Source: Phycisphaerae bacterium (GTDB taxonomy: Bacteria; Planctomycetota; Phycisphaerae; Phycisphaerales; UBA1924). From it: a DNA stretch of 64,000 nt. The position numbers and the translations under genes are program-made. Below are positions 6,446 to 53,954 of this stretch, piece after piece. Position 1 is the stretch's first letter. Each line of letters starts with the position of its first letter. The notes below the pieces were generated by a model. That model was not told the DNA's origin. It searched no databases and saw only the letters and a list, made by a program, of their open reading frames with translations. The DNA is taken from assembly GCA_014192545.1 (NCBI GenBank), contig BJHL01000001.1:482380-546379 (forward strand), in the 5' to 3' direction.

Positions 6446-6509
<64 letters not shown>

Positions 6510-7907: not shown

Positions 7908-7912
7908 CAACT

Positions 7913-7958
7913 CACTTCGTCACTTCGTCACTCCGTCACTTCGTCACTTCGTGACTTC
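7913..7958. repeat. Octamer repeat array (GTCACTTC type) at the livJ stop codon
   Basis: About five degenerate units of GTCACTTC/GTCACTCC directly abut the livJ stop codon on the minus strand. Related arrays, read in the other orientation as GAAGTGAC, follow the GH15 gene (12952-12989) and rplI (39971-40008). Confidence 0.7.
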
Positions 7959-9227
7959 TCACTGTGCCTCCACCGTCGTCACATACGTCGGCATCGGCGG
8001 GTTGCCCGCCATCTCCACCACCACCGCGCTCTTGGTCGCATTGCGATTCGCATCAATCGTGATCTTGCCCGTCACGCCCAGGAAGTCCTTCGTCGCCGCA
8101 ATCGCATCACGCACGGGCTTGCCATCCGTGCTCTTGGCTCGCTCCATCGACTCAAACAAAATCTTGGCTGCGTCATAGCCCAGCGCCGCCAAACCATCAG
8201 GCGTGGCCCCACCAAACTCCGCGCGATACGCCTTGATGAATTCCTGCACGCGCGCATCAGGCTGGTCCGGCGCGTAGTGATTCGTGTAATAGCTGCCTTC
8301 GATCGCATCGCCCGCGATCTTCGCGAGTTGGTCGCTGTCCCAGCCATCGCCGCCCAGCATGGGCTTGGTAATGCCAAGTCGGCGGGCCTGAATCGCGATG
8401 TTGCCCACGTCGGTGTAGTAACCAGGAATGTAAATCACATCCGCACCCGCGCTGCGAATGCTGGTGAGCTGGCTCGTAAAGTCCTGCGCGCCGCCCGTGT
8501 AGTTCTGCTTGGTCGCAATCGTGCCGCCCATGCGCGTGAAGTTCAGTTCAAACTGCTCGGCCAGTCCCACCGCATACGCCTGCGCTTGGTCCACCAGCAC
8601 CGCTGCCTTGCCAGCTTTCAGATTCTCGCGTGCAAACTTCGCCCCCGCCAAACCCTGAAACGGATCAATAAAGCACACGCGGAAAATGTAATCGCCAATC
8701 TCCGTCACCTTCGGATTCGTGCTGCTGGGCGTAATCATGGGCACGCCTGCTTCCTGACACACCGGCCCAGCCGCCAAGCTCAGCTTGCTGGCCACTTCGC
8801 CCAGCACCGCCGTCACCTTGTCGCTCTTGACCAGCCGCTCGACTGCGAGCTTGGCTTCGCCCGCATCGCCGCGCGTGTCATACTCCTTCAGTTCAATAGG
8901 CTTGCCCAGCACGCCGCCCTTGGCATTGACTTCCTTGATCGCCAGCCGAATGCCGTTGCTCGTGCTTTGGCCAAACGTGGCCTCGCTCCCCGTCAGCGAG
9001 CCAAAGTGCCCGATAACAATCGCCTTCCCACTCGGAGCTGCCGCCGGCGCGCTCTCGCTCTTGGCACTCTCGGGCTTAGCCGCCTCAGTCTTGGCCGCTT
9101 CAGGCTTCGCCGGTGTCGTCGCTGCAGTATTCGCCGCCGGTGCCGCTTGCTTCTTATCGCACCCAAGCAATCCCAAACTCAGCAAGCCACCCGCCAGCCA
9201 GCCCAACGTCATTCTCGCACTCAACAT
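7959..9227 (-). CDS. livJ: Branched-chain amino-acid ABC transporter substrate-binding lipoprotein
   Basis: A 422-residue periplasmic binding protein of the Leu/Ile/Val receptor type: IVIGHFGSLTGSEATFGQST, GIRLAIKEVNAKGG, a DTRGD segment, TPSSTNPKVTE and DVIYIPGYYTDVG. The start at 9227 (MLSARMTLGWLAGG) gives a lipoprotein signal with lipobox LLGC, and AAAGGA lies about 11 bases upstream. After the Cys comes an Ala/Lys/Glu/Pro linker of about 50 residues built on repeated EAAK/ESAK units, tethering the domain to the membrane. It is first in the liv operon. The substrate cannot be fixed from sequence; relatives bind branched-chain amino acids, amides or urea. Confidence 0.93.
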   Translation of the reverse strand: MLSARMTLGWLAGGLLSLGLLGCDKKQAAPAANTAATTPAKPEAAKTEAAKPESAKSESAPAAAPSGKAIVIGHFGSLTGSEATFGQSTSNGIRLAIKEVNAKGGVLGKPIELKEYDTRGDAGEAKLAVERLVKSDKVTAVLGEVASKLSLAAGPVCQEAGVPMITPSSTNPKVTEIGDYIFRVCFIDPFQGLAGAKFARENLKAGKAAVLVDQAQAYAVGLAEQFELNFTRMGGTIATKQNYTGGAQDFTSQLTSIRSAGADVIYIPGYYTDVGNIAIQARRLGITKPMLGGDGWDSDQLAKIAGDAIEGSYYTNHYAPDQPDARVQEFIKAYRAEFGGATPDGLAALGYDAAKILFESMERAKSTDGKPVRDAIAATKDFLGVTGKITIDANRNATKSAVVVEMAGNPPMPTYVTTVEAQ

Positions 9228-9436: not shown

Positions 9437-9605
9437 CTACTCACCAAGTCCCCGTCGCACAGGAAAGGGTCCACGTGTGGTCGGCGGCTTGTCGAGTGGG
9501 TGGGTTGGACAACTCAGACCCTAGGAATGCACCAGTCAGCCGGCGCGGGGTCATCCTGCGTCCGCACGCTGGTCCTGTCGAGTAAACGAATAGGAGATCG
9601 TGTTC

Positions 9606-12600
9606 ATGACCGTTGCGCATCGATTGTTCACGCTGGCCGGCCTCGCCCTGACTGCGACCGCCGTTGCCCAGCCCGCTTTCATCGGGCATACGCCAACCCA
9701 GCAAGTCTTCGGCGAGCCCAGCGGCATCACTAACCGCGAACCCGATGCAGTCCGCACGGGCGAACAAGTCGATCTGTGGGTCAAAGTCGGCCCAAGCTTC
9801 AGCTACGACGTCGTCCTGATCTACTACACCGTTGACGGCACCAGCCCCGTCGGCGCCAACGGCGTGCCCAGCAACTCCAGCACCCGCGTCATCCGCAGCA
9901 GCACCAATCCCAGCCAGTTCGCGTTCATCCGCAACCAGCCCAACGGCATCGGCGGCAACGACGATTGGTGGCGCATCCGCATTCCCGACGCCGACGCGCG
10001 CGCGTACGGCCGGACCATCAACTATCGCATCGCTGCTTGGCGCACCGGCGGCGGCGGCTTGCCCGTGGGCGAGCAGAACACACCCGTGTACAACTACCGC
10101 GTCCTGGCCCCCTGGCCCGGCGCAGGCTTCGGCCAGCCCAACCCCGGCGCCGGCTACCCGCCCGTGCAGTTCTGGAAAGAAGAAGCCTTCATCGGCAACA
10201 CCTTCACCGCTGCGATGCTCGACCAAAACGGCACGCTGTGGGACATGTACTTCCCAACGCCAGGCGGCGTCCAAGGCGTGGGCACCAAGAACGAAGGCTA
10301 CAGCGAACAAGCTGACACCTTCCCCGCTGGCCTCTCCTCCGAAAAACGCGGCCAAATGCACCTCAACCAAGCCATGGTGGGCATCCGCAGCGATCGTGAC
10401 AACGTGACGCACTGGCTCAGCAACCCCAGCGGCGTGAGCTTCAACAACGTCACGCAGAGTTACCTGAGCGACGAAACCAACACCGTTCGCACCACGCAAA
10501 CGCTCTTCGCCAACGGCAACAACATCGCCGTCACGCAAAGCGACTTCGCTCCCGCTGGCATCGACTTCCCCGATGGCCTCGCCGGCACGGGCGAGCAAAA
10601 GCACATGCTCATCAAGCGCATGACGCTGTGCAACAACCTCGCAACGGCGCAAGACGTCACCGTGTACTACTACATGGACCCCGCCCTCAACGGCGGCGAC
10701 CAATACGACGCGATGTTCTGGGATGCGGCTCGCGGCGCGATGACTGCCTTCGACAAGACCACCCGCACTGTCACGGGCACGGGGCCTTTCATCAGCGATC
10801 CCAACGAATACAACATCACCACCTTCGGCAACATGCAGAAGAACATCGCCTTGTACCTCACCGCGGCGATGAAGGTCGATGGCCAACCTGCCAACGAAAA
10901 CTGGCGCGACACCAGCGGCGACCAAAGCCAAGGCTGGATCGCTCGCCGCGTCACGCTGCCGCCGGGCGTTGATGTGAGTGTCGAAATCATGATGGCCGGC
11001 GCGCACTTCCGCCCTGAACCCATCACCGCGCCCATGCCCGGCAGCGACGGCGTGTACGACAACGAAATCGTGCCGATGCTCGACTGGTTCTACGCCAGCA
11101 ACATGGCAACCACGCAAACCACCACCGACACCTACTGGGCCAACTGGCTCAATAACGGCGTCACGCTCGACACGCCCGACGCGCGCTACGACAAACTCAT
11201 GAAGCGTGGCCTCTTGGGCACCGCGCTGCACCAAGACGGCGTACACGGCGGCATCGTTGCTGGCTATCACAACGGCGCGTATTACTACGTCTGGCCGCGT
11301 GATGCCATGTGGGCGGCGGTCACGCTGGCTCGCACGGGCCACTTCACCGAAGCGCGCCAAGCCATCGACTGGATGCGCGTTTCCAGCTATCGCGATTTTG
11401 AAGCCTGGGGCCGCAAGGGCTTCTGGAAGCAAAAGTGCACGACCGACGGCTTCACCGTCTGGGGCGCGCCGCAGATTGACGGCACCGCCGTCTTCCCGTG
11501 GGCTGTCCAGTTCCTCGACAACCTGCAGGCCGATACCGCGTACCTGAACCTCAACTACTCCGCCGTGCGCGACAGCGTTTTGGCGATGACCACCGACAGC
11601 AGCGACAGCCGACTGCGCTGGGAAGAAGCCTTCAACCTGACCTACAGCAACAACCTGTGGGAAGACAGCTACGACACGTTCATCTTCAGCAACGCCAACG
11701 TGCACCGCGGCCTCAAGGACGCGGCGAAGATCGCAACGACCCTGGGCTTTGCGAGCGACGCCAACGACGCCAACACCCGCGCAGGCTGGGTCAAGAGCGG
11801 TCTTGACGCGCGCCTGAACTGGGACGGCGAAAACACCGACATCAGCCAACTGGGTATCGTCTATCCGTTCGAGGTTTATAGCCCGACCGACTTCAATTCC
11901 ACGCGCGTGATGGATCGCATCAACGGCGTGCGCCGCAAGTTCAACAACGCTCACCCCACGGCTGAGCCGCTGGTGAACTACGCGGGCTTCCCCAACGACG
12001 GTTACGGCTGGACCGATCTCATCAACCGTTATTGGGGCGATGGCTACTGGGGCGGCGGCCCGCACGGCGCGGGTCCGTGGTTCTTGACGACGATGTGGTA
12101 CGGCGCGTACTACGCCGTGCGGCAGGACCTGAGCCCCGGCACGGGCGATATCGACAACCACAAGTATCGCCTTGATCTGCTGCTCAACCGCGTGGGGCCT
12201 GTGGGCCTTGGCGCCGAGCAGATTGGCGCACGATTCGTTGACAACAGCAAGCCCGGCTCGCTGCTGTATCCGGGTCAGAACGATTTCATGCTGCAAACCG
12301 CGTGGCCCAACGCGTGGGAAAGCATGAGCTTCTTTACCGACTCGCTGATGCTCTTCCTGGACTACACGCCCAGTGCGCGCACCAACACCATGACCTTTGA
12401 ACCCAAGCTGCCCAGCACTTGGAACACCATGACCTACAACAACGTGCGGATGCAGCCCAGCCCGCTCGCTCCGGTTCACTCCATCGACGTCACCGTCTCG
12501 CGTGACGCTTTCGGCGAGACGCACACTTTCAATAACGATCTGGGCATCGCCGTCAACGTCGGCACGGTCATTCGCACCGACCTGACCAAGCCCATCCGCA

Positions 12601-12944
12601 GCGTCACTCGCAACGATGTTGCACACCCCTACACCCTCGACGCCGCCACGGGCCGCGTGACGATCGCCGCGAACCCGCTCGAAAGCGGCTCGCTGAACGC
12701 TCAAACCGTCTACCGCGTGCAATACGACATCTGCGACAGCATCGACTTCAACAACAACGGCGTCTTCCCCGAAGACCAAGACGTCGTCGACTTCTTCGAC
12801 GTTCTCGCCGGCGGCAACCCCGCGACGTGCGATGTTGTCCTGGGCTGCCAAGACATCGACTTCAACAACAACGGCGTCTTCCCCGAAGACGAAGATGTGG
12901 TTGCGTTCTTCCGTGTGCTGGCTGGTGGCGGCTGCACGGAGTGA
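9606..12944 (+). CDS. Secreted glycoside hydrolase family 15 (glucoamylase-like) protein with two dockerin-like modules
   Basis: A 1112-residue protein. The ATG at 9606 has AGGAG at a good distance; the GTG at 9600 is too close to it. The signal peptide is MTVAHRLFTLAGLALTATAVAQ. A beta-sandwich-like N-terminal half is followed by an (alpha/alpha)6 GH15 domain with GGIVAGYHNGAYYYVWPRDA, QIDGTAVFPWA, NLWEDSYDTF (probable general acid Glu686) and GLGAEQIGARF (probable general base Glu871). Residues 1043-1112 hold two copies of the CDxIDFNNNGVFPED module ending VLAGG. The role would be hydrolysis of alpha-1,4 or related glucans outside the cytoplasm, with the modules docking or anchoring the enzyme. 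The exact substrate is uncertain. The gene ends in a terminator. Confidence 0.9.
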   Translation: MTVAHRLFTLAGLALTATAVAQPAFIGHTPTQQVFGEPSGITNREPDAVRTGEQVDLWVKVGPSFSYDVVLIYYTVDGTSPVGANGVPSNSSTRVIRSSTNPSQFAFIRNQPNGIGGNDDWWRIRIPDADARAYGRTINYRIAAWRTGGGGLPVGEQNTPVYNYRVLAPWPGAGFGQPNPGAGYPPVQFWKEEAFIGNTFTAAMLDQNGTLWDMYFPTPGGVQGVGTKNEGYSEQADTFPAGLSSEKRGQMHLNQAMVGIRSDRDNVTHWLSNPSGVSFNNVTQSYLSDETNTVRTTQTLFANGNNIAVTQSDFAPAGIDFPDGLAGTGEQKHMLIKRMTLCNNLATAQDVTVYYYMDPALNGGDQYDAMFWDAARGAMTAFDKTTRTVTGTGPFISDPNEYNITTFGNMQKNIALYLTAAMKVDGQPANENWRDTSGDQSQGWIARRVTLPPGVDVSVEIMMAGAHFRPEPITAPMPGSDGVYDNEIVPMLDWFYASNMATTQTTTDTYWANWLNNGVTLDTPDARYDKLMKRGLLGTALHQDGVHGGIVAGYHNGAYYYVWPRDAMWAAVTLARTGHFTEARQAIDWMRVSSYRDFEAWGRKGFWKQKCTTDGFTVWGAPQIDGTAVFPWAVQFLDNLQADTAYLNLNYSAVRDSVLAMTTDSSDSRLRWEEAFNLTYSNNLWEDSYDTFIFSNANVHRGLKDAAKIATTLGFASDANDANTRAGWVKSGLDARLNWDGENTDISQLGIVYPFEVYSPTDFNSTRVMDRINGVRRKFNNAHPTAEPLVNYAGFPNDGYGWTDLINRYWGDGYWGGGPHGAGPWFLTTMWYGAYYAVRQDLSPGTGDIDNHKYRLDLLLNRVGPVGLGAEQIGARFVDNSKPGSLLYPGQNDFMLQTAWPNAWESMSFFTDSLMLFLDYTPSARTNTMTFEPKLPSTWNTMTYNNVRMQPSPLAPVHSIDVTVSRDAFGETHTFNNDLGIAVNVGTVIRTDLTKPIRSVTRNDVAHPYTLDAATGRVTIAANPLESGSLNAQTVYRVQYDICDSIDFNNNGVFPEDQDVVDFFDVLAGGNPATCDVVLGCQDIDFNNNGVFPEDEDVVAFFRVLAGGGCTE

Positions 12945-21636: not shown

Positions 21637-21644
21637 AAGGCATT

Positions 21645-21704
21645 GGGGACTGGGGACTGGGGACTGGGGACTGGGGACTGGGGACTGGGGACTGGGCATT
21701 AGGG
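21645..21704. repeat. Seven perfect GGGGACT heptamers, ending GGGCATTAGGG
   Basis: Seven exact 7-base units begin nine bases after the ATPase stop codon and lie inside an apparent operon, 46 bases before the permease start. A short segment related to the GAAGT octamer family (ACTTCGTTACTTC) follows at 21716-21740. Confidence 0.9.
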
Positions 21705-26723: not shown

Positions 26724-27464
26724 TTAGGCGTAGCGCGTGGGGTCGGGAACGTCAGCGTGCAAGAAGCCTTCGCGGCGGATTTGGCAACTGTCGCAGTGGC
26801 CGCAGGCGAAGGTGCTGGAGTCGCGGGTGATGGGGTCGTAGCAACTGTGGGTGAGGGAGAAATCAACGCCCAGCGATGTGCCGGTGGTGATGATTTGGGC
26901 TTTGGTCATGTTGATGATGGGGGCGTGGATGCGGAGGCCTTGCTCGCGGTGAGCGGCCGCTTCAACGCCTAGTTTGGTTGCGAGATTCGCGGTGCGTTCA
27001 AAGCTCTCGATGAAGGCGGGCCGGCAGTCGGGGTAGCCTGAGTAGTCGACGGCGTTGACACCGATGTAGAGATCGCGGGCGGTGACAACTTCGGCGTAGC
27101 CGATGGCGAGGGAGAGGAACGTGAGGTTGCGCGCGGGGACGTAGGTGATGGGAATGGCGTCATCGTCGCGCGAGGTTGTGCTTGCGGTGGATTCGTCGTG
27201 GACGTCGCGGTCTTTGGGGACTTCGAGGGCGTCGCTGGTGAGAGCGGAGCCACCGATTGCGCGCAGGTCGAGGGGGATGATTTTGTGGGAGACGGCGCCG
27301 AGTTGTTTGGCGACGGCGGCGGCGGCGAGGAGTTCGTGGCGGTGGCGCTGGCCGTAGTCGATGGAGAGGGCGTGGACAGCAAAGCCGTCACGCTTGGCGC
27401 AGGCGAGGGTGACGGCGGAGTCGAGGCCGCCGGAAAGGAGGAGGATGGCTGAGGGAAGAGGCAT
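26724..27464 (-). CDS. queC: 7-cyano-7-deazaguanine (preQ0) synthase QueC
   Basis: 246 residues. The ATP-pyrophosphatase P-loop is [14 protein letters not shown], with [27 protein letters not shown] and [16 protein letters not shown]. The zinc-binding Cys cluster is CYDP and [14 protein letters not shown]. It converts 7-carboxy-7-deazaguanine to preQ0 for queuosine tRNA modification. The other que genes are not in the window. The ATG at 27464 lies inside the CCCTAATGCC heptamer repeat; since the P-loop starts at residue 7, no downstream start is possible. Confidence 0.95.
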
Positions 27465-27560
27465 TAGGGATTAGGGATTGGGGATTAGGGATTGGGCATT
27501 GGGGGGACGGGAACATCGGCTTGCGTTTACACCAATGCCCAATCCCCAATGCCTAGTCCC
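27461..27560. repeat. Two facing heptamer arrays between queC and trmB
   Basis: At 27461-27506 are GGGATTA/GGGATTG units ending GGGCATTGGGG. At 27532-27560 is the inverted version (ACCAATGCCCAATCCCC, then ATGCCTAGTCCC). The first supplies the queC start codon and the second the trmB stop codon. Confidence 0.8.
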
Positions 27561-28320: not shown

Positions 28321-28375
28321 GGGGACGGAGAACGGAGAACGGGGAGCGGAGAACGGGGGGAGCGGGGGCGGGGGG
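28321..28375. repeat. GGAGAAC/GGGGAGC heptamer array between trmB and the thioredoxin-like gene
   Basis: Degenerate units GGGGACG, GAGAACG, GAGAACG, GGGAGCG, GAGAACG and then G-rich sequence, ending at the stop codon of the thioredoxin-like gene. It is the same family as 6446-6509. Confidence 0.65.
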
Positions 28376-33326: not shown

Positions 33327-33360
33327 CGCATCAGGCTGCAAAGCCAGCCTGATGGCACGA
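33327..33360. repeat. 33-bp palindromic element, perfect inverted partner at 35458
   Basis: Bases 33327-33359 are the exact reverse complement of 35458-35490. The element has imperfect arms CATCAGGCT/AGCCTGATG around GCAAAGCC. It sits between the zinc-ribbon gene and the first PEP-CTERM-like gene. Confidence 0.8.
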
Positions 33361-35402: not shown

Positions 35403-35486
35403 ATGTCCATGACTGCCTGCACCCGCGCCGCCGCGGCTGGTGGCATCACTCTCCCCGCGTGCCATCAGGCTGGCTTTGCAGCCTGA
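35403..35486 (+). pseudogene. Truncated gene: conserved leader and signal start, cut by a palindromic element
   Basis: An ATG at 35403 has the same strong leader as the first PEP-CTERM-like gene (GGGCAAGAGCCC, AAGGAGAGAGAG). It reads MSMTACTRAAAAGGITLPAC, HQAGFAA, stop. The last nine codons and the stop come from the 33-bp palindromic element at 35458-35490. It looks like a third secreted-protein gene of which only the first 19 or so codons remain. Confidence 0.5.
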
Positions 35487-35490
35487 TGCG
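35458..35490. repeat. 33-bp palindromic element, inverted copy of 33327-33359
   Basis: Exact reverse complement of the earlier copy. It terminates the truncated reading frame. Confidence 0.8.
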
Positions 35491-36344: not shown

Positions 36345-36464
36345 CCCGACGCCGGACCTGAGGCTTGGCGACGGTCTGGATGGATGTGCGGTGGGCGAGC
36401 GAGTTGTTGGTAGGTGGTTGGCGTTTGATCCGGACCTTCGCGGAGCCTCAGGTCCGGCGTCGGG
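36345..36464. repeat. Pair of inverted 35-bp repeats between ssb and the pYEATS gene
   Basis: 36345-36379 and 36430-36464 are inverted copies (about 30 of 35 match) of CCGGACCTTCGCGGAGCCTC then AGGTCCGGCGTCGGG. A third copy, direct relative to the second, lies at 39047-39081. Each copy also has internal dyad symmetry (CCGGACCT/AGGTCCGG). Confidence 0.75.
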
Positions 36465-36488
36465 GGGTGGGTAAAACGGAGGTGGGCG

Positions 36489-38970: not shown

Positions 38971-39046
38971 ATGTCTGCGATTCCTGTGCACGCCATACCC
39001 GCTGTTTGGTATCGGTTGTGTTGTCCGTGGATCCGCAGTGGTTCAT

Positions 39047-39081
39047 CCGGACCTTCGCAGAGCCTCAGGTCCGGCGTCGGG
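39047..39081. repeat. Third copy of the CCGGACCTTCGCAGAGCCTC repeat
   Basis: One base different from 36430-36464 over 35 bases. It lies in the 259-base gap before rplI, where nothing else was recognised. Confidence 0.75.
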
Positions 39082-39229
39082 CGTTGGGACGGCCTAATAT
39101 CTCGACCCACCCGGTTGCGGCTTTTCATCGCGTGTTGCGGTGTTTGGCTGCTAACTCAACGAACGATCGGCTCCTCCCGCCCTTTTCGGCGGCAAAGCAG
39201 CCGGAGCCGAATCGTTGGAGGACAGCGTC

Positions 39230-42215: not shown

Positions 42216-44312
42216 TTACTGGGGGCATTCGCCGCCAGCGAGGACGTTGAAGAAGTCGATGACATCCTGGTCTTCGGGGAAGACATCGTTGTTGTTGAAG
42301 TCGATGTCGTTGCATTCGGGGCAGTCAGCGCCGGCGAGAACGGCGAAGAAGTCAATGACGTCTTGGTTTTCGGGGAAAACCTCGTTGTTGTTGAAGTCGA
42401 TGTCGTCGCACGTGGGACCACTGCCGCAGTTTGGATCCCCTGGGAGGCCCACTGTCACCACCGCCGTACGACTCACAAACTCGCCGCATGCGATCGCGAC
42501 GGCACGCACTGCAAAGCCGCTACCCGTCAGGAAGTTCGAGAACGTCACTGTGCTTGTATTCGTTCCGCTCACGTTGCCGATCGTCGCCACTTGGAAGATC
42601 AACTCGCCATCTTCAAGACGACGCCAAAAGAACCCGCCTTCGCCGTTGTCCCGACCAAACTCCCAGGCCCAGCTCAGTGCGCCCTCGCTCGAAGCATTCG
42701 CTGTGAACGTCAGCGTGTTTGGGCCGCCACAGATCGTTTGGTCAGCAGGCTGCGTCGAGAACGTTGCGCCGGCACAATCGCCGCTCACGGTTTCGAGCAC
42801 CCACATGTTGCGGCCGCTGTCGCATGCCCAGCCGTCAAAGCTCGAAGGCAGCACGATGATGCGATACGTGCCTGCATCAAGCCCGCGATTAATCGTGACT
42901 GGCGCGCAGAGGTCATCGAAGTAAAAGCCGTTGTCCACAAAGAACTCTGTGGTGCCAGAGCAGTCGCCGTCTCGCAAACTCTGCACAATCGCTGCTGCAG
43001 GCAACTGCGAGCGAAGCACAAGCCCCACATTGCGCCGCTCGCTGATGGTGAACTCAAACCAATCTTTATCACGAAGCTGGCCCGTACTGAAGAACGTGCC
43101 ACTGAGCGTCTGTCCCAATGAAATCGTCTCAAACGCGGGCGGCGCGCTGTTGCACCCGCCGTTGTTGTCACTCCCACATGCTTCGCTTTCAGCAATCGCG
43201 CCCGCCGGAATCGTGAGCGGACATGCTGCAGGAATCATGCGGACAATGAGCCCCATGTCGCCCGTACCCCCAGCAAAGATGCCAAGCGAGAACAGAATCT
43301 CCTGCCCTTGCACTGCATCGAGAATGAAGAACACGCTATCATCAAAAACGATGCTTCCGCCTCCTGCGCACCGCAGCACGCTGCCGTTGCACGCGCTGTA
43401 CTGCGTGAGGATGGGAGTCGCCGCACCACCCGCTCCGCCCGTCGCTTCGATGTAGACTTTGCCCGTGCTGGTTGGTGTGAAGCTAAACCAAATGTCCTTC
43501 GGCTGCAGCGCAGGCTCAGCAAAGGGATAGCAAGGCGTCGAAGCATCGTTGAGTGCTCCCGCGTTGCTGCCTTCCCACGCAGGCTCGCTCCCCACACTCT
43601 CTGTCAGCACGAGAGGCGACGAGCATTGGTCGTTGCTCGGGGGCGGGAGCGGCGTCGTGTTGCCTACGGAGAAGCTCAGATCAAACAAATCAAACGGAGA
43701 GAAGCTCACCGGAAAGCTGCCCGTCGTCGTCACGTTCCAGTTTGTTGCTCCAATTGTCGCGAGATTCGCAGGGCCCGCCACCACCGCAAGCCAATATGTG
43801 CCCGCCGCGAGCGTTGGGCCATCCTGCCCTTGCAGAGCAGGCGTATCAGGCGGATTGCGAAATGCTGTGCTGCCAAAGCTCAGCCCTGCTGCGATTCCAG
43901 GAGGAAAACTTCCGTCGGTATCGTCGCTCGCAATCAGGTTGCCCAGATTGTCGTAGAGCGCAATCAGCGGGTCCTTCGTGCTTGGGTCAGGCTCGGTGCT
44001 TGTGATGCGCGTGTCGATGTCAAAGAAAAGTTCGCCGCTGATGGGAGCCGTCAGCTCGAAGCGAATCCACTTCACCGTCACCGTCTCGCCTCCGGAAGGG
44101 TCAAACGCTCGGTCGGTGTCGCCCACATACTCCTGCGCGCTGGGAGGACTGGAAGGTGCCTCAAATGCGCCCGCATCGACGAACGTCGCGGGCTGCGCGA
44201 GCGCAGTACCTGCGGCCATGCTCACGATACCTACCAAACTCAGCAAAGCACCTTGAAGTTTGCCCGCAACACCAGACGCACTTCGAAACGATCTCGAACC
44301 GATATAGTCCAT
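42216..44312 (-). CDS. Secreted multi-domain protein with two dockerin-like modules (copy 1)
   Basis: 698 residues; the ATG at 44312 has AGGAG 8 bases upstream. The signal peptide ends GIVSMAAGTALAQ. The body holds three beta-sandwich blocks resembling bacterial pre-peptidase C-terminal (PPC) domains (WIRFELTAPISGELFFDIDT; DIWFSFTPTSTGKVYIEATG; DWFEFTISERRNVGLVLRSQ) and an Ig-like domain (QPADQTICGGPNTLTFTANA). The C-terminus carries two CxDIDFNNNxVFPEDQDVI modules ending VLAGGECPQ. There is no catalytic domain, so it is probably a structural or adhesive surface protein. It is nearly identical to the protein at 45659 and divergent from the regulator-like gene at 44502. Confidence 0.85.
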   Translation of the reverse strand: MDYIGSRSFRSASGVAGKLQGALLSLVGIVSMAAGTALAQPATFVDAGAFEAPSSPPSAQEYVGDTDRAFDPSGGETVTVKWIRFELTAPISGELFFDIDTRITSTEPDPSTKDPLIALYDNLGNLIASDDTDGSFPPGIAAGLSFGSTAFRNPPDTPALQGQDGPTLAAGTYWLAVVAGPANLATIGATNWNVTTTGSFPVSFSPFDLFDLSFSVGNTTPLPPPSNDQCSSPLVLTESVGSEPAWEGSNAGALNDASTPCYPFAEPALQPKDIWFSFTPTSTGKVYIEATGGAGGAATPILTQYSACNGSVLRCAGGGSIVFDDSVFFILDAVQGQEILFSLGIFAGGTGDMGLIVRMIPAACPLTIPAGAIAESEACGSDNNGGCNSAPPAFETISLGQTLSGTFFSTGQLRDKDWFEFTISERRNVGLVLRSQLPAAAIVQSLRDGDCSGTTEFFVDNGFYFDDLCAPVTINRGLDAGTYRIIVLPSSFDGWACDSGRNMWVLETVSGDCAGATFSTQPADQTICGGPNTLTFTANASSEGALSWAWEFGRDNGEGGFFWRRLEDGELIFQVATIGNVSGTNTSTVTFSNFLTGSGFAVRAVAIACGEFVSRTAVVTVGLPGDPNCGSGPTCDDIDFNNNEVFPENQDVIDFFAVLAGADCPECNDIDFNNNDVFPEDQDVIDFFNVLAGGECPQ

Positions 44313-44355
44313 GACAAGCACTCCTGTTCATCGCACTCCAGCACCAGCAACACGA
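42222..44355. repeat. Segmental duplication, copy 1 (partner 45662-47795)
   Basis: 2.13 kb aligned at a constant offset of 3440 bases. In the stretches compared, differences are confined to a dinucleotide in the dockerin region (cysteine-codon neighbourhood) and about ten bases at the start-codon end. Beyond the boundaries the flanks diverge at once. Confidence 0.92.
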
Positions 44356-44362
44356 CATCGTT

Positions 44363-45658: not shown

Positions 45659-47752
45659 TTACGGGCATTCGCCGCCAGCGAGGACGTTGAAGAAGTCGAT
45701 GACATCCTGGTCTTCGGGGAAGACATCGTTGTTGTTGAAGTCGATGTCGTTGCAGGCGGGGCAGTCAGCGCCGGCGAGAACGGCGAAGAAGTCAATGACG
45801 TCTTGGTTTTCGGGGAAAACCTCGTTGTTGTTGAAGTCGATGTCGTCGCACGTGGGACCACTGCCGCAGTTTGGATCCCCTGGGAGGCCCACTGTCACCA
45901 CCGCCGTACGACTCACAAACTCGCCGCATGCGATCGCGACGGCACGCACTGCAAAGCCGCTACCCGTCAGGAAGTTCGAGAACGTCACTGTGCTTGTATT
46001 CGTTCCGCTCACGTTGCCGATCGTCGCCACTTGGAAGATCAACTCGCCATCTTCAAGACGACGCCAAAAGAACCCGCCTTCGCCGTTGTCCCGACCAAAC
46101 TCCCAGGCCCAGCTCAGTGCGCCCTCGCTCGAAGCATTCGCTGTGAACGTCAGCGTGTTTGGGCCGCCACAGATCGTTTGGTCAGCAGGCTGCGTCGAGA
46201 ACGTTGCGCCGGCACAATCGCCGCTCACGGTTTCGAGCACCCACATGTTGCGGCCGCTGTCGCATGCCCAGCCGTCAAAGCTCGAAGGCAGCACGATGAT
46301 GCGATACGTGCCTGCATCAAGCCCGCGATTAATCGTGACTGGCGCGCAGAGGTCATCGAAGTAAAAGCCGTTGTCCACAAAGAACTCTGTGGTGCCAGAG
46401 CAGTCGCCGTCTCGCAAACTCTGCACAATCGCTGCTGCAGGCAACTGCGAGCGAAGCACAAGCCCCACATTGCGCCGCTCGCTGATGGTGAACTCAAACC
46501 AATCTTTATCACGAAGCTGGCCCGTACTGAAGAACGTGCCACTGAGCGTCTGTCCCAATGAAATCGTCTCAAACGCGGGCGGCGCGCTGTTGCACCCGCC
46601 GTTGTTGTCACTCCCACATGCTTCGCTTTCAGCAATCGCGCCCGCCGGAATCGTGAGCGGACATGCTGCAGGAATCATGCGGACAATGAGCCCCATGTCG
46701 CCCGTACCCCCAGCAAAGATGCCAAGCGAGAACAGAATCTCCTGCCCTTGCACTGCATCGAGAATGAAGAACACGCTATCATCAAAAACGATGCTTCCGC
46801 CTCCTGCGCACCGCAGCACGCTGCCGTTGCACGCGCTGTACTGCGTGAGGATGGGAGTCGCCGCACCACCCGCTCCGCCCGTCGCTTCGATGTAGACTTT
46901 GCCCGTGCTGGTTGGTGTGAAGCTAAACCAAATGTCCTTCGGCTGCAGCGCAGGCTCAGCAAAGGGATAGCAAGGCGTCGAAGCATCGTTGAGTGCTCCC
47001 GCGTTGCTGCCTTCCCACGCAGGCTCGCTCCCCACACTCTCTGTCAGCACGAGAGGCGACGAGCATTGGTCGTTGCTCGGGGGCGGGAGCGGCGTCGTGT
47101 TGCCTACGGAGAAGCTCAGATCAAACAAATCAAACGGAGAGAAGCTCACCGGAAAGCTGCCCGTCGTCGTCACGTTCCAGTTTGTTGCTCCAATTGTCGC
47201 GAGATTCGCAGGGCCCGCCACCACCGCAAGCCAATATGTGCCCGCCGCGAGCGTTGGGCCATCCTGCCCTTGCAGAGCAGGCGTATCAGGCGGATTGCGA
47301 AATGCTGTGCTGCCAAAGCTCAGCCCTGCTGCGATTCCAGGAGGAAAACTTCCGTCGGTATCGTCGCTCGCAATCAGGTTGCCCAGATTGTCGTAGAGCG
47401 CAATCAGCGGGTCCTTCGTGCTTGGGTCAGGCTCGGTGCTTGTGATGCGCGTGTCGATGTCAAAGAAAAGTTCGCCGCTGATGGGAGCCGTCAGCTCGAA
47501 GCGAATCCACTTCACCGTCACCGTCTCGCCTCCGGAAGGGTCAAACGCTCGGTCGGTGTCGCCCACATACTCCTGCGCGCTGGGAGGACTGGAAGGTGCC
47601 TCAAATGCGCCCGCATCGACGAACGTCGCGGGCTGCGCGAGCGCAGTACCTGCGGCCATGCTCACGATACCTACCAAACTCAGCAAAGCACCTTGAAGTT
47701 TGCCCGCAACACCAGACGCACTTCGAAACGATCTCGAACCGATATAATCCAT
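45659..47752 (-). CDS. Secreted multi-domain protein with two dockerin-like modules (copy 2)
   Basis: 697 residues, almost identical to the protein at 42216. The substitutions seen are E-to-A next to the last-but-one module (CPECND to CPACND) and loss of the final Gln. It has the same signal peptide, PPC-like blocks, Ig-like block and two dockerin-like modules. The ATG at 47752 keeps the AGGAG site. Only about 40 bases of the copy 1 upstream region are retained, so it probably depends on a different promoter or on read-through from the gene at 47861. Confidence 0.85.
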   Translation of the reverse strand: MDYIGSRSFRSASGVAGKLQGALLSLVGIVSMAAGTALAQPATFVDAGAFEAPSSPPSAQEYVGDTDRAFDPSGGETVTVKWIRFELTAPISGELFFDIDTRITSTEPDPSTKDPLIALYDNLGNLIASDDTDGSFPPGIAAGLSFGSTAFRNPPDTPALQGQDGPTLAAGTYWLAVVAGPANLATIGATNWNVTTTGSFPVSFSPFDLFDLSFSVGNTTPLPPPSNDQCSSPLVLTESVGSEPAWEGSNAGALNDASTPCYPFAEPALQPKDIWFSFTPTSTGKVYIEATGGAGGAATPILTQYSACNGSVLRCAGGGSIVFDDSVFFILDAVQGQEILFSLGIFAGGTGDMGLIVRMIPAACPLTIPAGAIAESEACGSDNNGGCNSAPPAFETISLGQTLSGTFFSTGQLRDKDWFEFTISERRNVGLVLRSQLPAAAIVQSLRDGDCSGTTEFFVDNGFYFDDLCAPVTINRGLDAGTYRIIVLPSSFDGWACDSGRNMWVLETVSGDCAGATFSTQPADQTICGGPNTLTFTANASSEGALSWAWEFGRDNGEGGFFWRRLEDGELIFQVATIGNVSGTNTSTVTFSNFLTGSGFAVRAVAIACGEFVSRTAVVTVGLPGDPNCGSGPTCDDIDFNNNEVFPENQDVIDFFAVLAGADCPACNDIDFNNNDVFPEDQDVIDFFNVLAGGECP

Positions 47753-47795
47753 GTCGAGCACTCCTATAAATCGCACTCCAGCACCAGCAACACAA
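45662..47795. repeat. Segmental duplication, copy 2
   Basis: Partner of 42222-44355. At its 3' side the flank (GCTTGCGTTCAAGCGATCAG, then CGTTACGGGCATTC) is instead shared with the 3' end of the third dockerin-like gene at 47840-47870. Copy 2 is therefore a mosaic of two sources. Confidence 0.9.
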
Positions 47796-47860
47796 CAATA
47801 CCACATCGTGCAGTAAACTTGAGAATGAGCGGTCTGCCGCTTGCGTTCAAGCGATCAGCG

Positions 47861-49186
47861 TTACGGGCATTCGCCGCCAGCGAGGACGTTGAAGAAGTCG
47901 ATGACATCCTGGTCTTCAGGGAAGACCCGGTTGTTGTTGAAGTCGATGTCGTTGCAGCTGGGGCAGTCGTCGCCAGCGAGGACGTTGAAGAAGGCAATCA
48001 CGTCCTGATCCTCGGGGAAGACGTCGTTGTTGTTGAAGTCGATGTCGTCGCAGCCAGTGGGAACTGTCAGATCAACAAAGAACGCTTGCTCTCTCCCCTG
48101 CGGATTGCGACCCTGACCCACGATCGACTTGCCGTCGCCCGAAATGTCGGTCGCTACCAGCAACTTCCACCCCGAAAGCGCCTCGCTCAGCCCGTAGGTC
48201 CACTCAAGCTCATTCTGCAGATCTCGAAAGCCCACGCCCGCTTTCCAGATCCACGCACGCGTGCCCGGAGTGCCGAACTGCAAATACTCGCCGACGACCA
48301 CCGACCCGTCGCGGCTCACCGCCCGAGCGAACGAACTGCCGAAGTTGCCCGGGGCGTCCTCATCGAGTGCCTGCACCCCCTCGGCCGCAGTCCAGCGGAA
48401 CGCCTTCATTTGAAAACTTTGCGCAAAGACGCCTACCGCCACCGACCCGTCAAAGTTCAGGTCATTCACACCCTGGAAGTTGCTGTCCGTCACCGGCAAG
48501 AGCAGCGTTGGAACCCCGTTGCGGATAATCACCGGCGCGTACCCATCATACTGGCCCGACATGGTCGCAATTTGCCGCGCCGAACCCGCGAGAACCTGGC
48601 CGTCACCGCTCATCGTGTTGAAGTAGTAATAGCCCGTCGGAACCTGCGCAGGCCGCGCAAATATCGTTCGCTGACCGGTCTGCGGCCGGAACGTGAACAT
48701 GTCGCCTTGGTCCGGGTAAATCCCTCGGATACCGCCGTACACCTGCGCATCGTCCGAAAGGCCAAAGAACAAGCTGTTCCAGATACCCTGTTCGTCACGC
48801 AGTTGCGGGATCAGATCCTCATACCCGTTCGCGGCCGACCACCGCCACGTGTCGCCGAGCACCACGCTCCCGTCCGCCGAGATGCCCACGGCCGGATAAA
48901 GCGACTGAAGCTCGGGCGTGATAACTACCGGGGCAGTGCCTGGAGACCATCGCACCACAAACCGCGGAATCGCCCCGTCGATGAACCCAGATTGGTACCC
49001 AAGACTTACCACAAACCGCCCGTCATCGCTGATGCGCACGCCGGAGTAACCACCTGAACCGCTCACGATGCAGACGTTCTGATTACACCCGGGCTCCTCG
49101 CCGATGCCGGGCATCGGAACAAACATCTGGGCGAGCACCGTGGTGCTGGTCATGACAATCGAAGCGAGCGCAAGAAACTGCTGCAT
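47861..49186 (-). CDS. Secreted HAF-repeat (propeller-like) protein with two dockerin-like modules
   Basis: 441 residues; ATG at 49186 with GGAGAG upstream. The signal peptide is MQQFLALASIVMTSTTVLAQ. The body is built of repeats of about 45 residues with the cores ISDDGRFVVSLGY, ISADGSVVLGDTW, MSGDGQVLAGSAR, LNFDGSVAVGVFA, VSRDGSVVVGEYL and ISGDGKSIVGQGR, the pattern of 'HAF' extracellular repeats that fold as a beta-propeller. Two dockerin-like modules follow (CDDIDFNNNDVFPEDQDV; CNDIDFNNNRVFPEDQDV). It is divergent from the second regulator-like gene across 138 bases. Confidence 0.82.
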   Translation of the reverse strand: MQQFLALASIVMTSTTVLAQMFVPMPGIGEEPGCNQNVCIVSGSGGYSGVRISDDGRFVVSLGYQSGFIDGAIPRFVVRWSPGTAPVVITPELQSLYPAVGISADGSVVLGDTWRWSAANGYEDLIPQLRDEQGIWNSLFFGLSDDAQVYGGIRGIYPDQGDMFTFRPQTGQRTIFARPAQVPTGYYYFNTMSGDGQVLAGSARQIATMSGQYDGYAPVIIRNGVPTLLLPVTDSNFQGVNDLNFDGSVAVGVFAQSFQMKAFRWTAAEGVQALDEDAPGNFGSSFARAVSRDGSVVVGEYLQFGTPGTRAWIWKAGVGFRDLQNELEWTYGLSEALSGWKLLVATDISGDGKSIVGQGRNPQGREQAFFVDLTVPTGCDDIDFNNNDVFPEDQDVIAFFNVLAGDDCPSCNDIDFNNNRVFPEDQDVIDFFNVLAGGECP

Positions 49187-51014: not shown

Positions 51015-53954
51015 TTACTGGGGGCAGGTGCCGCCAGCGAGGACGTTGAAGAAGTCAACCACGTCTTGGTCTTCGGGGAAGACGCCGTTGTTGTTGAAGT
51101 CGATGTCTTGGCAGCCCAGGACTGCATCGCAGGTCGTGGGGTTGCCGCCGGCGAGGACGTCGAAGAAGTCAACCACGTCTTGATCTTCGGGGAAGACGCC
51201 GTTCTGGTTGAAGTCGATGCTGTCGCAAGCGACGATGCCGTTGGCGAGGTCCAAGTCGGCTTGGTTGATGACGCCGTCGCAGTTGATGTTGCCTTGAGCC
51301 CAACCACCGTTGGTGCCCAGGTTGGCCGTGACGATGGCCACGTCGGCAGCGTCGCGCACGCCGTCGAGGTTCACGTCACCAGCAACCGTGCCCAAGACGA
51401 CCGTGAGCAGTTCGTCAAGGTCGGCACAGTTGATGACCAGGTCACCGTTGATGTCGGCTGAAAGGTCAGCGCGAGCAGCTTCGGCGGTTTCGGTCGCCCA
51501 GTCAATGTTGGTGTCCGTCGCGCTGAGGATCTGCGTGCGGACGTAATCAAGGTCAACCGCGTCGATGCGGTTGTCGGTTGCAGCAGCAACGCCGTCGTTG
51601 CCGTCAGCACCGATGGGCAGCCAGCCGCGGGTCGTGCCCGTCACGCTGTTCGCAACGTCACCGCGAGCATCGCCAGCGGCGTAGGGCTTGCCGGTGGCGA
51701 GAACGGTGCCGAAGAAGTTGCCACCAAAGGCGGTGTCAACTGCGGTGAAGCCAGCCTTGCGGTCAAGCTTGCCGGTAGCGGGGTCGATGGCCAGACCATC
51801 GGCCCAGTAGCGGACGTCCATGCGATCGGCATTGGCGCCCACGCGACCGAAGTTGCCGTCGCCGCTGAAGTCACCGAGGATTTCGATGCTTGCCTTGCTG
51901 CCGGCGTTCCAGGTCACGGTTGCGCCATCGTTACGGTCGGTCCAAGCAGCGATGAGGCCAGCCGCGTCGTTGAGGTTGCGGAGGCCGTCGTTGTTGAAGT
52001 CGCCCATCACGCGGTTGAGGCTGAGTGCGCCGCTCAGAGCTGCGCCGTAGCCAACCGTCGTGCCATCTTGCAGCGTGAAGGTCGTGGCTGCGCCGGTGGT
52101 GCCGTCGCTGTAGGTTTGACCAGTCACACGGCGAGGAGCCTGACCGACGTTACCGGCAGCGCCAGCAGCGCCGTTGCCGCTGGTGCCGAAGGCTTGGTAG
52201 CGTGCTTGTGAGTACACGACCGTGCCGCGGATGTTGTCTTGCGTGAACTGGACGCGGCCGCTGTTGAGGCCGAAAGTGACGCCGTCGTTGCCTTGGAGGT
52301 AGTCAGTTGCGGTGAGGGGAATCAGCAGCGTTGCAGCGAATTCGCCGGGGCTGAAGAGGTTGATGGGGTTGGTGGGGTTGGCGTTGAAGGCGTTGATCGA
52401 ACGCGTGATGTTGTTGAGGAACTCAGCCGAGCTGTTGTTGTCCATGTTGGCAGCAACGGGGAACTGAGCGCGGAGAGCGTTCTCCGCAGTGATTTCAGCG
52501 GGGGTCAGGCCGCTCCAGCCGTAGCCACCGTCAGCGGCGGGGGCGAGGAGGGGGTTGCCGATGGTGGCGAAGATGGCCTTGCCACCGATTTGCCAGCCGT
52601 CAACCGTGCGAGCGACGCCCGTGCTGGGGTCGATTTCGCCGCGGAGGCCGTTGTCGAGGATGGTGTTGCCAGCCTCGCTGCCGCCGTTGCTGCGGGGACG
52701 GATGAAGTCACCGGTGCGGCCGTTGAGGTTCTTGGAGACTGAGAGGATGTCGCAGAAGGGGGCTTCGCTCGTGCGCCAGCTGTCGCCACCGACGTAGCCG
52801 ATCGTGAGGCGGTGGTAGCGAACGGTTTCGCGCACGTTGCCGGTGCCGTTCTTGTTGCTGGGGAGCCAGCTCGGGCCGGGGGTGTCGGTCGCGGCGCTGT
52901 TGTTCACGTTGCCCACGTACTCGCCAATGCCCCAGCTCGGATCGACGCCGATGCTGTTCATGAAGGCGTTGTGCGTGCCCGAGCCGACGTCACGGTTGAT
53001 GAAGTGGATGTTTTCGCCGGTGCTGGTACGACCAGTCAGAGCCAGGTGCTGAAGGTCGGTGAAGGTGATCTGCGAGATGCCCACGCCGAAGTTGGCGATG
53101 GGGGCGATGGGTGCCCAAGCGATCTGCGTATCGAAGATCGTGTTGTCGTTGGCTTGGCTGGGAACGCCCGTGTAGAGGTTCAGGGGCGACGCACCGAGGT
53201 TGACCAATGCGTTGCTGCCACCAGCACCCGATGAGCCACCTGTGCGGTTGACGTTGGTGCGGGGGTTGGTGCCGTAGCCGACTTGACCAGGACTACGCGA
53301 AGCCAAAGCATCGCCAGCCGTGCCAGCTTGGATCGTCCAGAGCGTGGGGACGTCAACGGGAGCGGCAGTGTTCTGCATGCCCGTGTTCGCGCCGGGGTTC
53401 ACGTTGCCACCTTGCCAAGCAGCCGCGCGGTACTTGTTGACACCGCTGGTGATTGCGCGGAAAGGAGCCGCACCGGGGTTGGCGGTGGTGTGGATCCAGC
53501 TGACTGCACCGCTGGGGAGACCGCCTGAGCCCAAGAACTGCTGAGCATTCACGAAGGCGGGGTTGGTCAGTGCCGAGCTCATGCTGGGCAGGGTGCTGTT
53601 AGCGGAGTTGGGGGTGAATTCGCCGCCAGCGCCCTTGCCGCCCCAATCAACCAGCTCTTGCACGCCCGAGACGCTGCCGACAGCGCGGTACTGGACGATG
53701 TAGTAGTTGCCCGGGAGGTAGCCAGCGCCTTGGGCGGTGGTGGGCAGCAGGTCGATGAGCGGATCGAACGCGGGCGTACGCACGGTATCGCCGTCAACGT
53801 CGATGAAGTCGTTGGCAACTTGGGGAGCTTGCAGCAGGTTCTGCAGCAGCGTTGCACCGTAGAGGTTGACAACATACGGAGCCTGGGCATTAGCAACGCT
53901 CACCGCGCCGCCGCACGCCGCAATCATCAAAAGGGCCTTGGTCGAATTCTTCAT
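51015..53954 (-). CDS. Large secreted protein: phosphate-binding-protein-like N-terminus, one EF-hand-type dockerin and two GC-type dockerin-like modules
   Basis: 979 residues from the ATG at 53954 (MKNSTKALLMIAACGGAVSV, then ANAQ). The N-terminal half (VNLYGATLLQNLLQAPQVAN; HFINRDVGSGTHNAFMNSIG; VRETVRYHRLTIGYVGGDSW) recalls PstS-type periplasmic binding proteins: the RDVGSGTH segment fits their ligand loop (R..GSGT). At about 665-860 are scattered calcium-loop-like segments (GDFNNDGLRNLNDAAGLIAA; GDFSGDGNFG; VDLDYVRT). A classical dockerin-like pair follows (GDVNLDGVRDAADVAIVTAN; GNINCDGVINQADLDL). The last 70 residues are the CDSIDFNQNGVFPEDQDVV and CQDIDFNNNGVFPEDQDVV modules. It probably functions at the cell surface; ligand unknown. 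AT-poor and strongly expressed in style. Confidence 0.8.
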   Translation of the reverse strand: MKNSTKALLMIAACGGAVSVANAQAPYVVNLYGATLLQNLLQAPQVANDFIDVDGDTVRTPAFDPLIDLLPTTAQGAGYLPGNYYIVQYRAVGSVSGVQELVDWGGKGAGGEFTPNSANSTLPSMSSALTNPAFVNAQQFLGSGGLPSGAVSWIHTTANPGAAPFRAITSGVNKYRAAAWQGGNVNPGANTGMQNTAAPVDVPTLWTIQAGTAGDALASRSPGQVGYGTNPRTNVNRTGGSSGAGGSNALVNLGASPLNLYTGVPSQANDNTIFDTQIAWAPIAPIANFGVGISQITFTDLQHLALTGRTSTGENIHFINRDVGSGTHNAFMNSIGVDPSWGIGEYVGNVNNSAATDTPGPSWLPSNKNGTGNVRETVRYHRLTIGYVGGDSWRTSEAPFCDILSVSKNLNGRTGDFIRPRSNGGSEAGNTILDNGLRGEIDPSTGVARTVDGWQIGGKAIFATIGNPLLAPAADGGYGWSGLTPAEITAENALRAQFPVAANMDNNSSAEFLNNITRSINAFNANPTNPINLFSPGEFAATLLIPLTATDYLQGNDGVTFGLNSGRVQFTQDNIRGTVVYSQARYQAFGTSGNGAAGAAGNVGQAPRRVTGQTYSDGTTGAATTFTLQDGTTVGYGAALSGALSLNRVMGDFNNDGLRNLNDAAGLIAAWTDRNDGATVTWNAGSKASIEILGDFSGDGNFGRVGANADRMDVRYWADGLAIDPATGKLDRKAGFTAVDTAFGGNFFGTVLATGKPYAAGDARGDVANSVTGTTRGWLPIGADGNDGVAAATDNRIDAVDLDYVRTQILSATDTNIDWATETAEAARADLSADINGDLVINCADLDELLTVVLGTVAGDVNLDGVRDAADVAIVTANLGTNGGWAQGNINCDGVINQADLDLANGIVACDSIDFNQNGVFPEDQDVVDFFDVLAGGNPTTCDAVLGCQDIDFNNNGVFPEDQDVVDFFNVLAGGTCPQ

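What the first reader, a model, noticed from the sequence alone, without database searches (positions are those of the whole stretch)
12732..12941. 'GC-type' dockerin-like modules on five unrelated secreted proteins
GH15, two PPC/Ig-type proteins, a propeller-type protein and a binding-protein-like protein all end in two 30-residue modules with D-x-N-x-N-G-like calcium loops and VLAGG. Even the DNA (GACATCGACTTCAACAACAA) is nearly identical between genes. No obvious cohesin partner is in the window. The modules may be a sorting or anchoring tag rather than a cellulosome part.
Basis: partly seen in the sequence, partly recalled or inferred. Interest (0 to 1): 0.55.

Follow-up and report, generated by a model that had tools for sequence, protein, structure and literature searches.

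The report
Genome-wide private dialect of dockerin-like tags
More than a hundred unrelated secreted proteins of this bacterium end in the same small calcium-loop docking tag, and each related species spells that tag in its own way, which suggests that every species keeps a private plug for a shared, still unidentified socket on its surface.

Summary
Five window proteins end in a pair of 30-residue modules framed by cysteines. In the whole genome 119 ORFs carry the module and 107 end in the pair; three carry it near the N-terminus. AlphaFold2 predicts a dockerin fold (pLDDT 93.9); all 14 PDB fold matches come from dockerin entries, though none reaches E 0.001. Pfam's dockerin model and NCBIfam's GC-type dockerin model (NF041540) do not recognise the window modules. 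NF041540 tags occur in 61 of 61 family genomes but are almost absent from the three genomes where this dialect abounds. The main new result: tags follow the genome, not the gene. In 21 ortholog pairs the tags are no more alike than shuffled partners (58.7% vs 59.0%). The nearest tag lies in the same genome for 216 of 217. The GH15 body carries its host's dialect in 9 of 10 copies compared. Best reading: a lineage-specific form of the GC-type dockerin tag that docks secreted proteins to one co-evolving receptor. No cohesin over cut-off exists in the genome, so the receptor is unknown and docking is inferred, not shown.

The parts
9600..12944 (+). GH15 protein (start codon uncertain) with C-terminal tag
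   Evidence: Pfam PF00723 E 4.3e-10; body found in 12 of 61 family genomes
12732..12818 (+). tag module 1 of the GH15 protein
   Evidence: module HMM 60.4 bits
12846..12935 (+). tag module 2 of the GH15 protein
   Evidence: module HMM 59.7 bits
42216..44321 (-). secreted Ig/galactose-binding-like protein, copy A of a tandem duplicate
   Evidence: PF23759 E 1e-6; 99.6% DNA identity to copy B over 2135 bases
42321..42410 (-). tag module 1, copy A
   Evidence: module HMM 59.6 bits
42225..42314 (-). tag module 2, copy A
   Evidence: module HMM 64.9 bits
45659..47806 (-). secreted Ig/galactose-binding-like protein, copy B
   Evidence: PF23759 E 1.1e-6
45761..45850 (-). tag module 1, copy B
   Evidence: module HMM 59.6 bits
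45665..45754 (-). tag module 2, copy B
   Evidence: module HMM 64.9 bits
47861..49234 (-). HAF-repeat (propeller-type) secreted protein
   Evidence: NCBIfam TIGR02913 23.1 bits over cut-off 22.65
47963..48052 (-). tag module 1 (pair modelled by AlphaFold2)
   Evidence: module HMM 58.8 bits; pLDDT 93.9
47867..47956 (-). tag module 2 (pair modelled by AlphaFold2)
   Evidence: module HMM 68.0 bits; pLDDT 93.9
   Evidence: no family over cut-off; sub-threshold Dockerin_1 upstream of the tag
51141..51227 (-). tag module 1
   Evidence: module HMM 59.8 bits
51024..51113 (-). tag module 2
   Evidence: module HMM 65.6 bits

Best explanation
The module pair is a dockerin-like docking tag. After Sec export, two near-identical calcium loop-helix modules fold into one small domain at the end of the protein, probably closed by disulfides between the four framing cysteines. 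The two-fold-like face of this domain binds, without covalent linkage, to one receptor type shared by all tagged proteins on the cell surface or in an extracellular matrix. Because more than 100 tags must fit the same receptor, tag and receptor drift together, which gives each lineage a private dialect. The genome in hand has one dialect; its relatives use others of the same GC-type dockerin system. Shown here: the genome-wide distribution and position of the tag, four conserved cysteines, a predicted dockerin fold, genome-specific dialects. Inferred: calcium binding, disulfide pairing, the receptor, attachment, and co-evolution with the receptor.
For: Genome-wide repertoire: 138 matches, 119 ORFs with a module, 107 with the pair at the C-terminus. 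Predicted fold: 14 of 14 Foldseek hits with E<=10 come from dockerin entries, best VIA Z 7.0. Near-symmetric modules: 77.7% identity between the two modules of one tag, as expected for the dual-mode, species-specific dockerin binding described in PMC12484212 (passages). Genome dialects: in 21 orthologs tag identity is 58.7% vs 59.0% for shuffled partners (704 of 1000 shuffles as high), while bodies are 27-81% identical; nearest tag in the same genome for 216 of 217; GH15 tails closest to their own genome in 9 of 10 copies compared. Reciprocal distribution: NF041540 in 61 of 61 family genomes but only 4, 1 and 3 matches in the three genomes with over 100 matches to this dialect. Synonymous sites are well diverged while residues stay about 75% identical, which points to selection on the protein. 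The pair can also sit directly behind the signal peptide, in two beta-helix proteins. Choice-of-anchor bodies.
Against: No receptor found. Cohesin: none over the Pfam cut-off in the own genome, 5 of 61 family genomes; the cohesin+HYR adaptor family is in 5 of 61 and absent from G000 and G161. Foldseek E-values are weak (best 0.2) and the tool warns that Z under 8 may mean only a common arrangement. No coordinates were available, so disulfide geometry and calcium sites were not measured. Signal peptides were judged by a crude rule only: 81 of 107 against 85 of 359 control ORFs. One sampled genome, G160, shows no clear dialect (28% within).
Confidence: 0.62

Rival explanations
1. The tag is a secretion signal: it is read by an outer-membrane export machine, in the manner of type IX C-terminal domains, rather than by an attachment receptor.
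For: The tag is C-terminal in nearly all cases and attached to very diverse bodies, most with a Sec-like signal by a crude rule. A shared machine would also explain genome dialects.
Against: At least two G000 proteins carry the pair right behind the signal peptide, not at the C-terminus. The predicted fold is dockerin-like. SprA_N has no match in the genome, but the control set did not ring either, so this is no proof of absence.
Confidence: 0.14
2. The tag is a covalent sorting signal: a sortase-like, exosortase-like or rhomboid protease cuts at it and links the protein to a surface polymer or lipid, perhaps through the last cysteine.
For: Conserved cysteine within a few residues of the stop; two exosortases over cut-off in the genome.
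Against: Nearly all tags end 0-2 residues after the last module, with no hydrophobic helix or basic tail. A gene two places from one exosortase has an ordinary IPTP..hydrophobic..RRRR tail, so exosortase seems to have its own kind of substrate. The pair can be N-terminal. Dockerin fold prediction. Sortase and rhombosortase enzymes were not searched.
Confidence: 0.1
3. The tag is only a stabilising calcium/disulfide cap without receptor, and its likeness within a genome comes from gene conversion or cassette copying.
For: An 11-gene long-linker subgroup has a same-codon rate of 0.79 and one pair reaches 0.97, so copying happens. Similarity is slightly higher for neighbours within 3 kb.
Against: For the bulk, the same-codon rate is 0.615-0.620, near the 0.586 expected from module codon usage, so most tags are not recently copied. 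Residue identity remains about 75%. Beyond 3 kb there is no steady fall with distance. A free cap would not need the same dialect on over 100 proteins.
Confidence: 0.14

Closest known systems
NCBIfam NF041540 dockerin_GC, GC-type dockerin domain-anchored protein
   Same: Paired loop-helix modules at the C-terminus of many secreted proteins per genome, ending at or near a cysteine; found in 61 of 61 genomes of the same family. The same GH15 body carries tags of the window kind or of the relatives' kinds.
   Different: The model does not match the five window proteins at E<=1. The window dialect has cysteines at both ends of each module (104 of 107 tags with all four) and a loop one residue longer than the PDB dockerin it aligns to.
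Type I dockerin (Pfam PF00404) and cellulosome cohesin-dockerin docking
   Same: Predicted dockerin fold; species-specific recognition and two-fold symmetry are known there (PMC12484212, passages).
   Different: No Pfam match for the module; no cohesin over cut-off in the genome; the cargo is not a cellulase set.
'Planctosome' cohesin/dockerin complex proposed for freshwater Planctomycetes (PMC6461901, passages)
   Same: Non-cellulosomal dockerins in Planctomycetes; a cohesin+HYR protein like the proposed adaptor exists in some relatives, e.g. G159.
   Different: The adaptor family is in 5 of 61 genomes and absent from G000 and G161. The paper proposes peptidase complexes; here the cargo is much broader.
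PEP-CTERM/exosortase, type IX CTD and LPXTG sorting tags
   Same: C-terminal tags shared by many unrelated exported proteins (recalled).
   Different: Those signals have a transmembrane helix and basic tail or an Ig-like CTD (recalled); this tag has no such helix and tail and can sit at the N-terminus.

Membership tests
GC-type dockerin (NF041540) | model score over 29 bits | tested here: not met
   no match at E<=1 on the five window proteins; the genome has 4 matches at E<=0.01
GC-type dockerin (NF041540) | paired C-terminal modules on many exported proteins, with a terminal Cys | tested here: met
   107 paired tags; Cys after module 2 in 107 of 107
Dockerin type I (PF00404) | Pfam gathering score on the module | tested here: not met
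   no hit on the modules of the five window proteins; only a sub-threshold hit upstream in one of them
Dockerin type I (PF00404) | dockerin fold: two loop-helix motifs | tested here: met
   by prediction only: pLDDT 93.9, helices 17-27 and 49-59; 14 of 14 Foldseek hits from dockerin entries but best E 0.2; VIA Z 7.0, rmsd 2.2, 57 aligned
Dockerin type I (PF00404) | calcium-type acidic/Asn residues in both loops | tested here: met
   by sequence only: D5, N7 and D17 at 0.99-1.0 in both modules of 71 tags; binding not measured; loop one residue longer
Dockerin type I (PF00404) | cohesin partner in the same genome | tested here: inconclusive
   no PF00963 match over cut-off in G000, best E 0.035; a divergent cohesin could be missed
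PEP-CTERM / exosortase substrate | PEP motif, transmembrane helix and basic tail at the C-terminus | tested here: not met
   108 of 119 ORFs end 0-2 residues after the last module; tails read
Type IX secretion cargo | SprA translocon in the genome | tested here: inconclusive
   no match to PF14349, but no control genome rang either
LPXTG / sortase substrate | sortase in the genome | not tested

The most novel reading that the evidence does not exclude
Each lineage of this planctomycete family runs a private docking code: one fast-evolving receptor that is not a Pfam-recognisable cohesin reads a dockerin-fold tag on over 100 secreted proteins, and the whole tag repertoire is rewritten together as the receptor drifts. 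It would be a species-barcoded surface assembly system with a new receptor class and cargo far beyond polysaccharide enzymes.
Probability: 0.35. Interest if true: 0.82.

Novelty: new variant of a known kind. Interest (0 to 1): 0.6.

Why it matters
If true, the 107 paired-tag ORFs (69,598 residues of stop-to-stop frame, about 5.7% of the genome's length at most) are routed through one unknown receptor. The dialects give a direct way to find it: it should be present across the family, exported, and its binding face should differ between lineages in step with the tag. It would also supply a set of possibly orthogonal dockerin-like tags for protein assembly.

Tried and rejected
Cohesin as partner: PF00963 is below cut-off in G000. 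The two weak hits are a 214-aa protein (cohesin E 0.016) and a lipoprotein-like protein with four DUF11 domains. The DUF11 protein, with tandem beta-sandwiches and a lipobox-like cysteine, is a possible receptor only by guess. Three tandem cohesins in G157:C283 sit on a 3.6 kb contig with TP-rich linkers, perhaps mis-binned. The cohesin+HYR adaptor family was rejected as general receptor. Exosortase as processor was considered and disfavoured. The SprA search is uninformative. Plasmids: no tblastn match to the tag. Recent DNA homogenisation was rejected for the bulk of tags, accepted for a subgroup. The first class-level search with the G000 profile found only G000 (1 of 150), which looked like an orphan until NF041540 was searched.

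Literature searched: 'GC-type dockerin' 0 papers; dockerin with PEP-CTERM 0; with 'concerted evolution' 0; with Phycisphaer 4 (listing only apart from PMC6461901); with Planctomycetes 24 (listing); two further listings. I read passages of PMC6461901, PMC11557425 and PMC12484212. Most subscription papers are not held.

Limits: A1 was built from 36 of the 107 pairs (the window query and 35 of 44 representatives); tags lacking the first cysteine were among the rows left out, so its invariant first Cys is biased (the full count is). G161 and G159 tags are samples (61 and 35 pairs) taken from the best matches to the G000 profile, which works against finding dialects. Other genomes are represented by 3-5 tags each; locus L277 of G160 showed no tag and L279 of G193 repeated L257, and both were left out. 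The GH15 tail of G160 (L251) was read but not put into the comparison; three more GH15 loci (L245, L247, L249) do not reach a C-terminus. Stop-to-stop frames were used, so lengths are upper bounds. Ortholog pairs are reciprocal best hits among fetched loci only.

Full report
What is there. The window lies at G000:C1:482380-546379 of a 3.66 Mb, 15-contig genome. Five proteins end in a pair of modules with the pattern C-x-x-I-D-F-N-N-N-x-V-F-P-E-D-x-D-V-x-D-F-F-x-V-L-A-G-G-x-C. The tag search of the genome gave 138 matches at E<=1. From 67 stretches plus the window, a module profile found 119 ORFs with at least one module; 109 have two and 10 have one at a stricter score. With a combined profile 107 G000 ORFs have the pair at the C-terminus. 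In 108 of the 119, the last module ends 0, 1 or 2 residues before the stop. All four framing cysteines are present in 104 of 107 pairs; the other 3 lack only the first.

Organism. A same-genus genome, G161, shares four contig lengths with MAG H1_MAG_00021 (Planctomycetaceae bacterium, JAIYDA); that they are the same is an inference. The other named carrier is an uncultured Phycisphaerales MAG (CALLYM).

Cargo. Pfam on the 107 tagged ORFs (74, 33) shows propeller repeats, subtilases, reprolysin- and matrixin-type peptidases, Ig domains, kelch, sugar dehydrogenases, di-haem peroxidases, alpha-amylase, GH16 and GH15. NCBIfam on the first 74 shows the choice-of-anchor families TIGR05002 (4 members) and NF041940 (3 members). 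A crude Sec-signal rule is met by 81 of 107 against 85 of 359 untagged ORFs.

Fold. AlphaFold2 on the pair of 47864-48058 with 34 sequences gave pLDDT 93.9, pTM 0.79 and two helices. Foldseek against the PDB returned 14 matches with E<=10, all from dockerin entries (judged by entry title and chain length), the best at E 0.2, none at 0.001. VIA-align gave Z 7.0, rmsd 2.2 over 57 residues for 6kgc_B. The profile search of PDB sequences returned two distinct sequences, both of the same dockerin, E 0.45 and 0.96, with one extra residue in the module's loop. The two modules of one tag are 77.7% identical in G000 (71 tags with two full modules).

Relation to the GC-type dockerin. NF041540 matched no window protein at E<=1; among eight proteins of relatives it matched two over cut-off and a third weakly. 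G000, G161 and G159 have 4, 1 and 3 such matches but at least 101, 101 and 151 matches to the window dialect profile. The window dialect is therefore a replacement for, and presumably a derivative of, the classical tag.

Dialects. Sampled tags look alike within a genome and different between genomes. Mean identity of random pairs: G000 74.7%, G161 75.8%, G159 80.4% within; G000-G161 59.7%, G000-G159 43.9% between. For 21 G000-G161 ortholog pairs with coverage over 0.6 (of 24 found), bodies are 27-81% identical (mean 52.1) but tags 58.7%, against 59.0% for shuffled partners. The nearest tag is in the same genome for 216 of 217. The GH15 body occurs in 12 of 61 genomes. Eleven tails were read and ten compared: nine are closest to their own genome's tags and one, G167:C103, is not. 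G196 and G193 agree more weakly (40% and 49% to own). G160 shows no clear dialect (28% within). These observations weaken a universal rule.

Selection or copying. At sites with the same residue the same codon is used in 0.620 of comparisons, against 0.586 expected from module codon usage and 0.496 from body usage. Pairs with unrelated bodies average 0.615, with no steady decline with distance beyond 3 kb. Protein-level constraint thus explains most of the likeness. The 11-gene long-linker subgroup at 0.79 shows that cassettes also spread.

Position. In L284:5111-6613 and L285:1528-3144 the pair lies just behind the signal peptide of beta-helix proteins; L036:1-873 also has it near the start of its frame. 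This argues against a signal that must be C-terminal.

Partner. Cohesin over cut-off: none in G000, 5 of 61 genomes in the family. Cohesin+HYR adaptor: 5 of 61, not G000 or G161. Two exosortases are present. The receptor remains unknown, and docking is the inference that best fits fold, position independence and dialects.

Verdict. A real, genome-scale, lineage-specific variant of the GC-type dockerin tag. The new element is the concerted, genome-private dialect on over 100 unrelated proteins; I found no description of it in the searches named in Tried and rejected.

Noticed in passing
window 42223-44357 and 45663-47797: Recent tandem duplication of a whole tagged gene: 2135 bases at 99.6% identity.
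   Followed up: yes
window 51249-51383 (-): The binding-protein-like protein has a second, type-I-like dockerin stretch (sub-threshold PF00404) just upstream of its terminal tag.
   Followed up: partly
window 6451-6506, 7912-7963, 21644-21696, 27459-27504, 28325-28356: Several short arrays with 7- or 8-base units of different sequence.
   Followed up: no
window 33327-33359 and 35458-35490: Perfect 33-base inverted repeat, arms about 2.1 kb apart.
   Followed up: no
window 36345-36471 and 39042-39088: A GGACCT..CAGGTCCGGCGTCGGG-type element repeated in direct and inverted copies.
   Followed up: no
L240 (G167:C103): GH15 copy 76% identical to the window protein with an IDFNNDG-type tag, unlike the rest of G167: mis-binned contig or gene transfer.
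   Followed up: partly
G195 (unnamed family genome, no locus): Only 3 NF041540 matches and none to A1, yet 165 first-look candidates: perhaps another dialect seen by neither model.
   Followed up: no
L150 (G157:C283): Frame of 611 residues with three cohesin domains and TP-rich linkers on a 3.6 kb contig; contamination or a true scaffoldin.
   Followed up: partly
L283:9344-10135 (-), near exosortase L283:6387-7394 (-): PEP-CTERM-like tail (IPTP, hydrophobic stretch, RRRR) near one of the two exosortases.
   Followed up: partly
L099:1411-3015 (-): Lipoprotein-like protein with four DUF11 beta-sandwich domains and a chance-level cohesin hit.
   Followed up: partly
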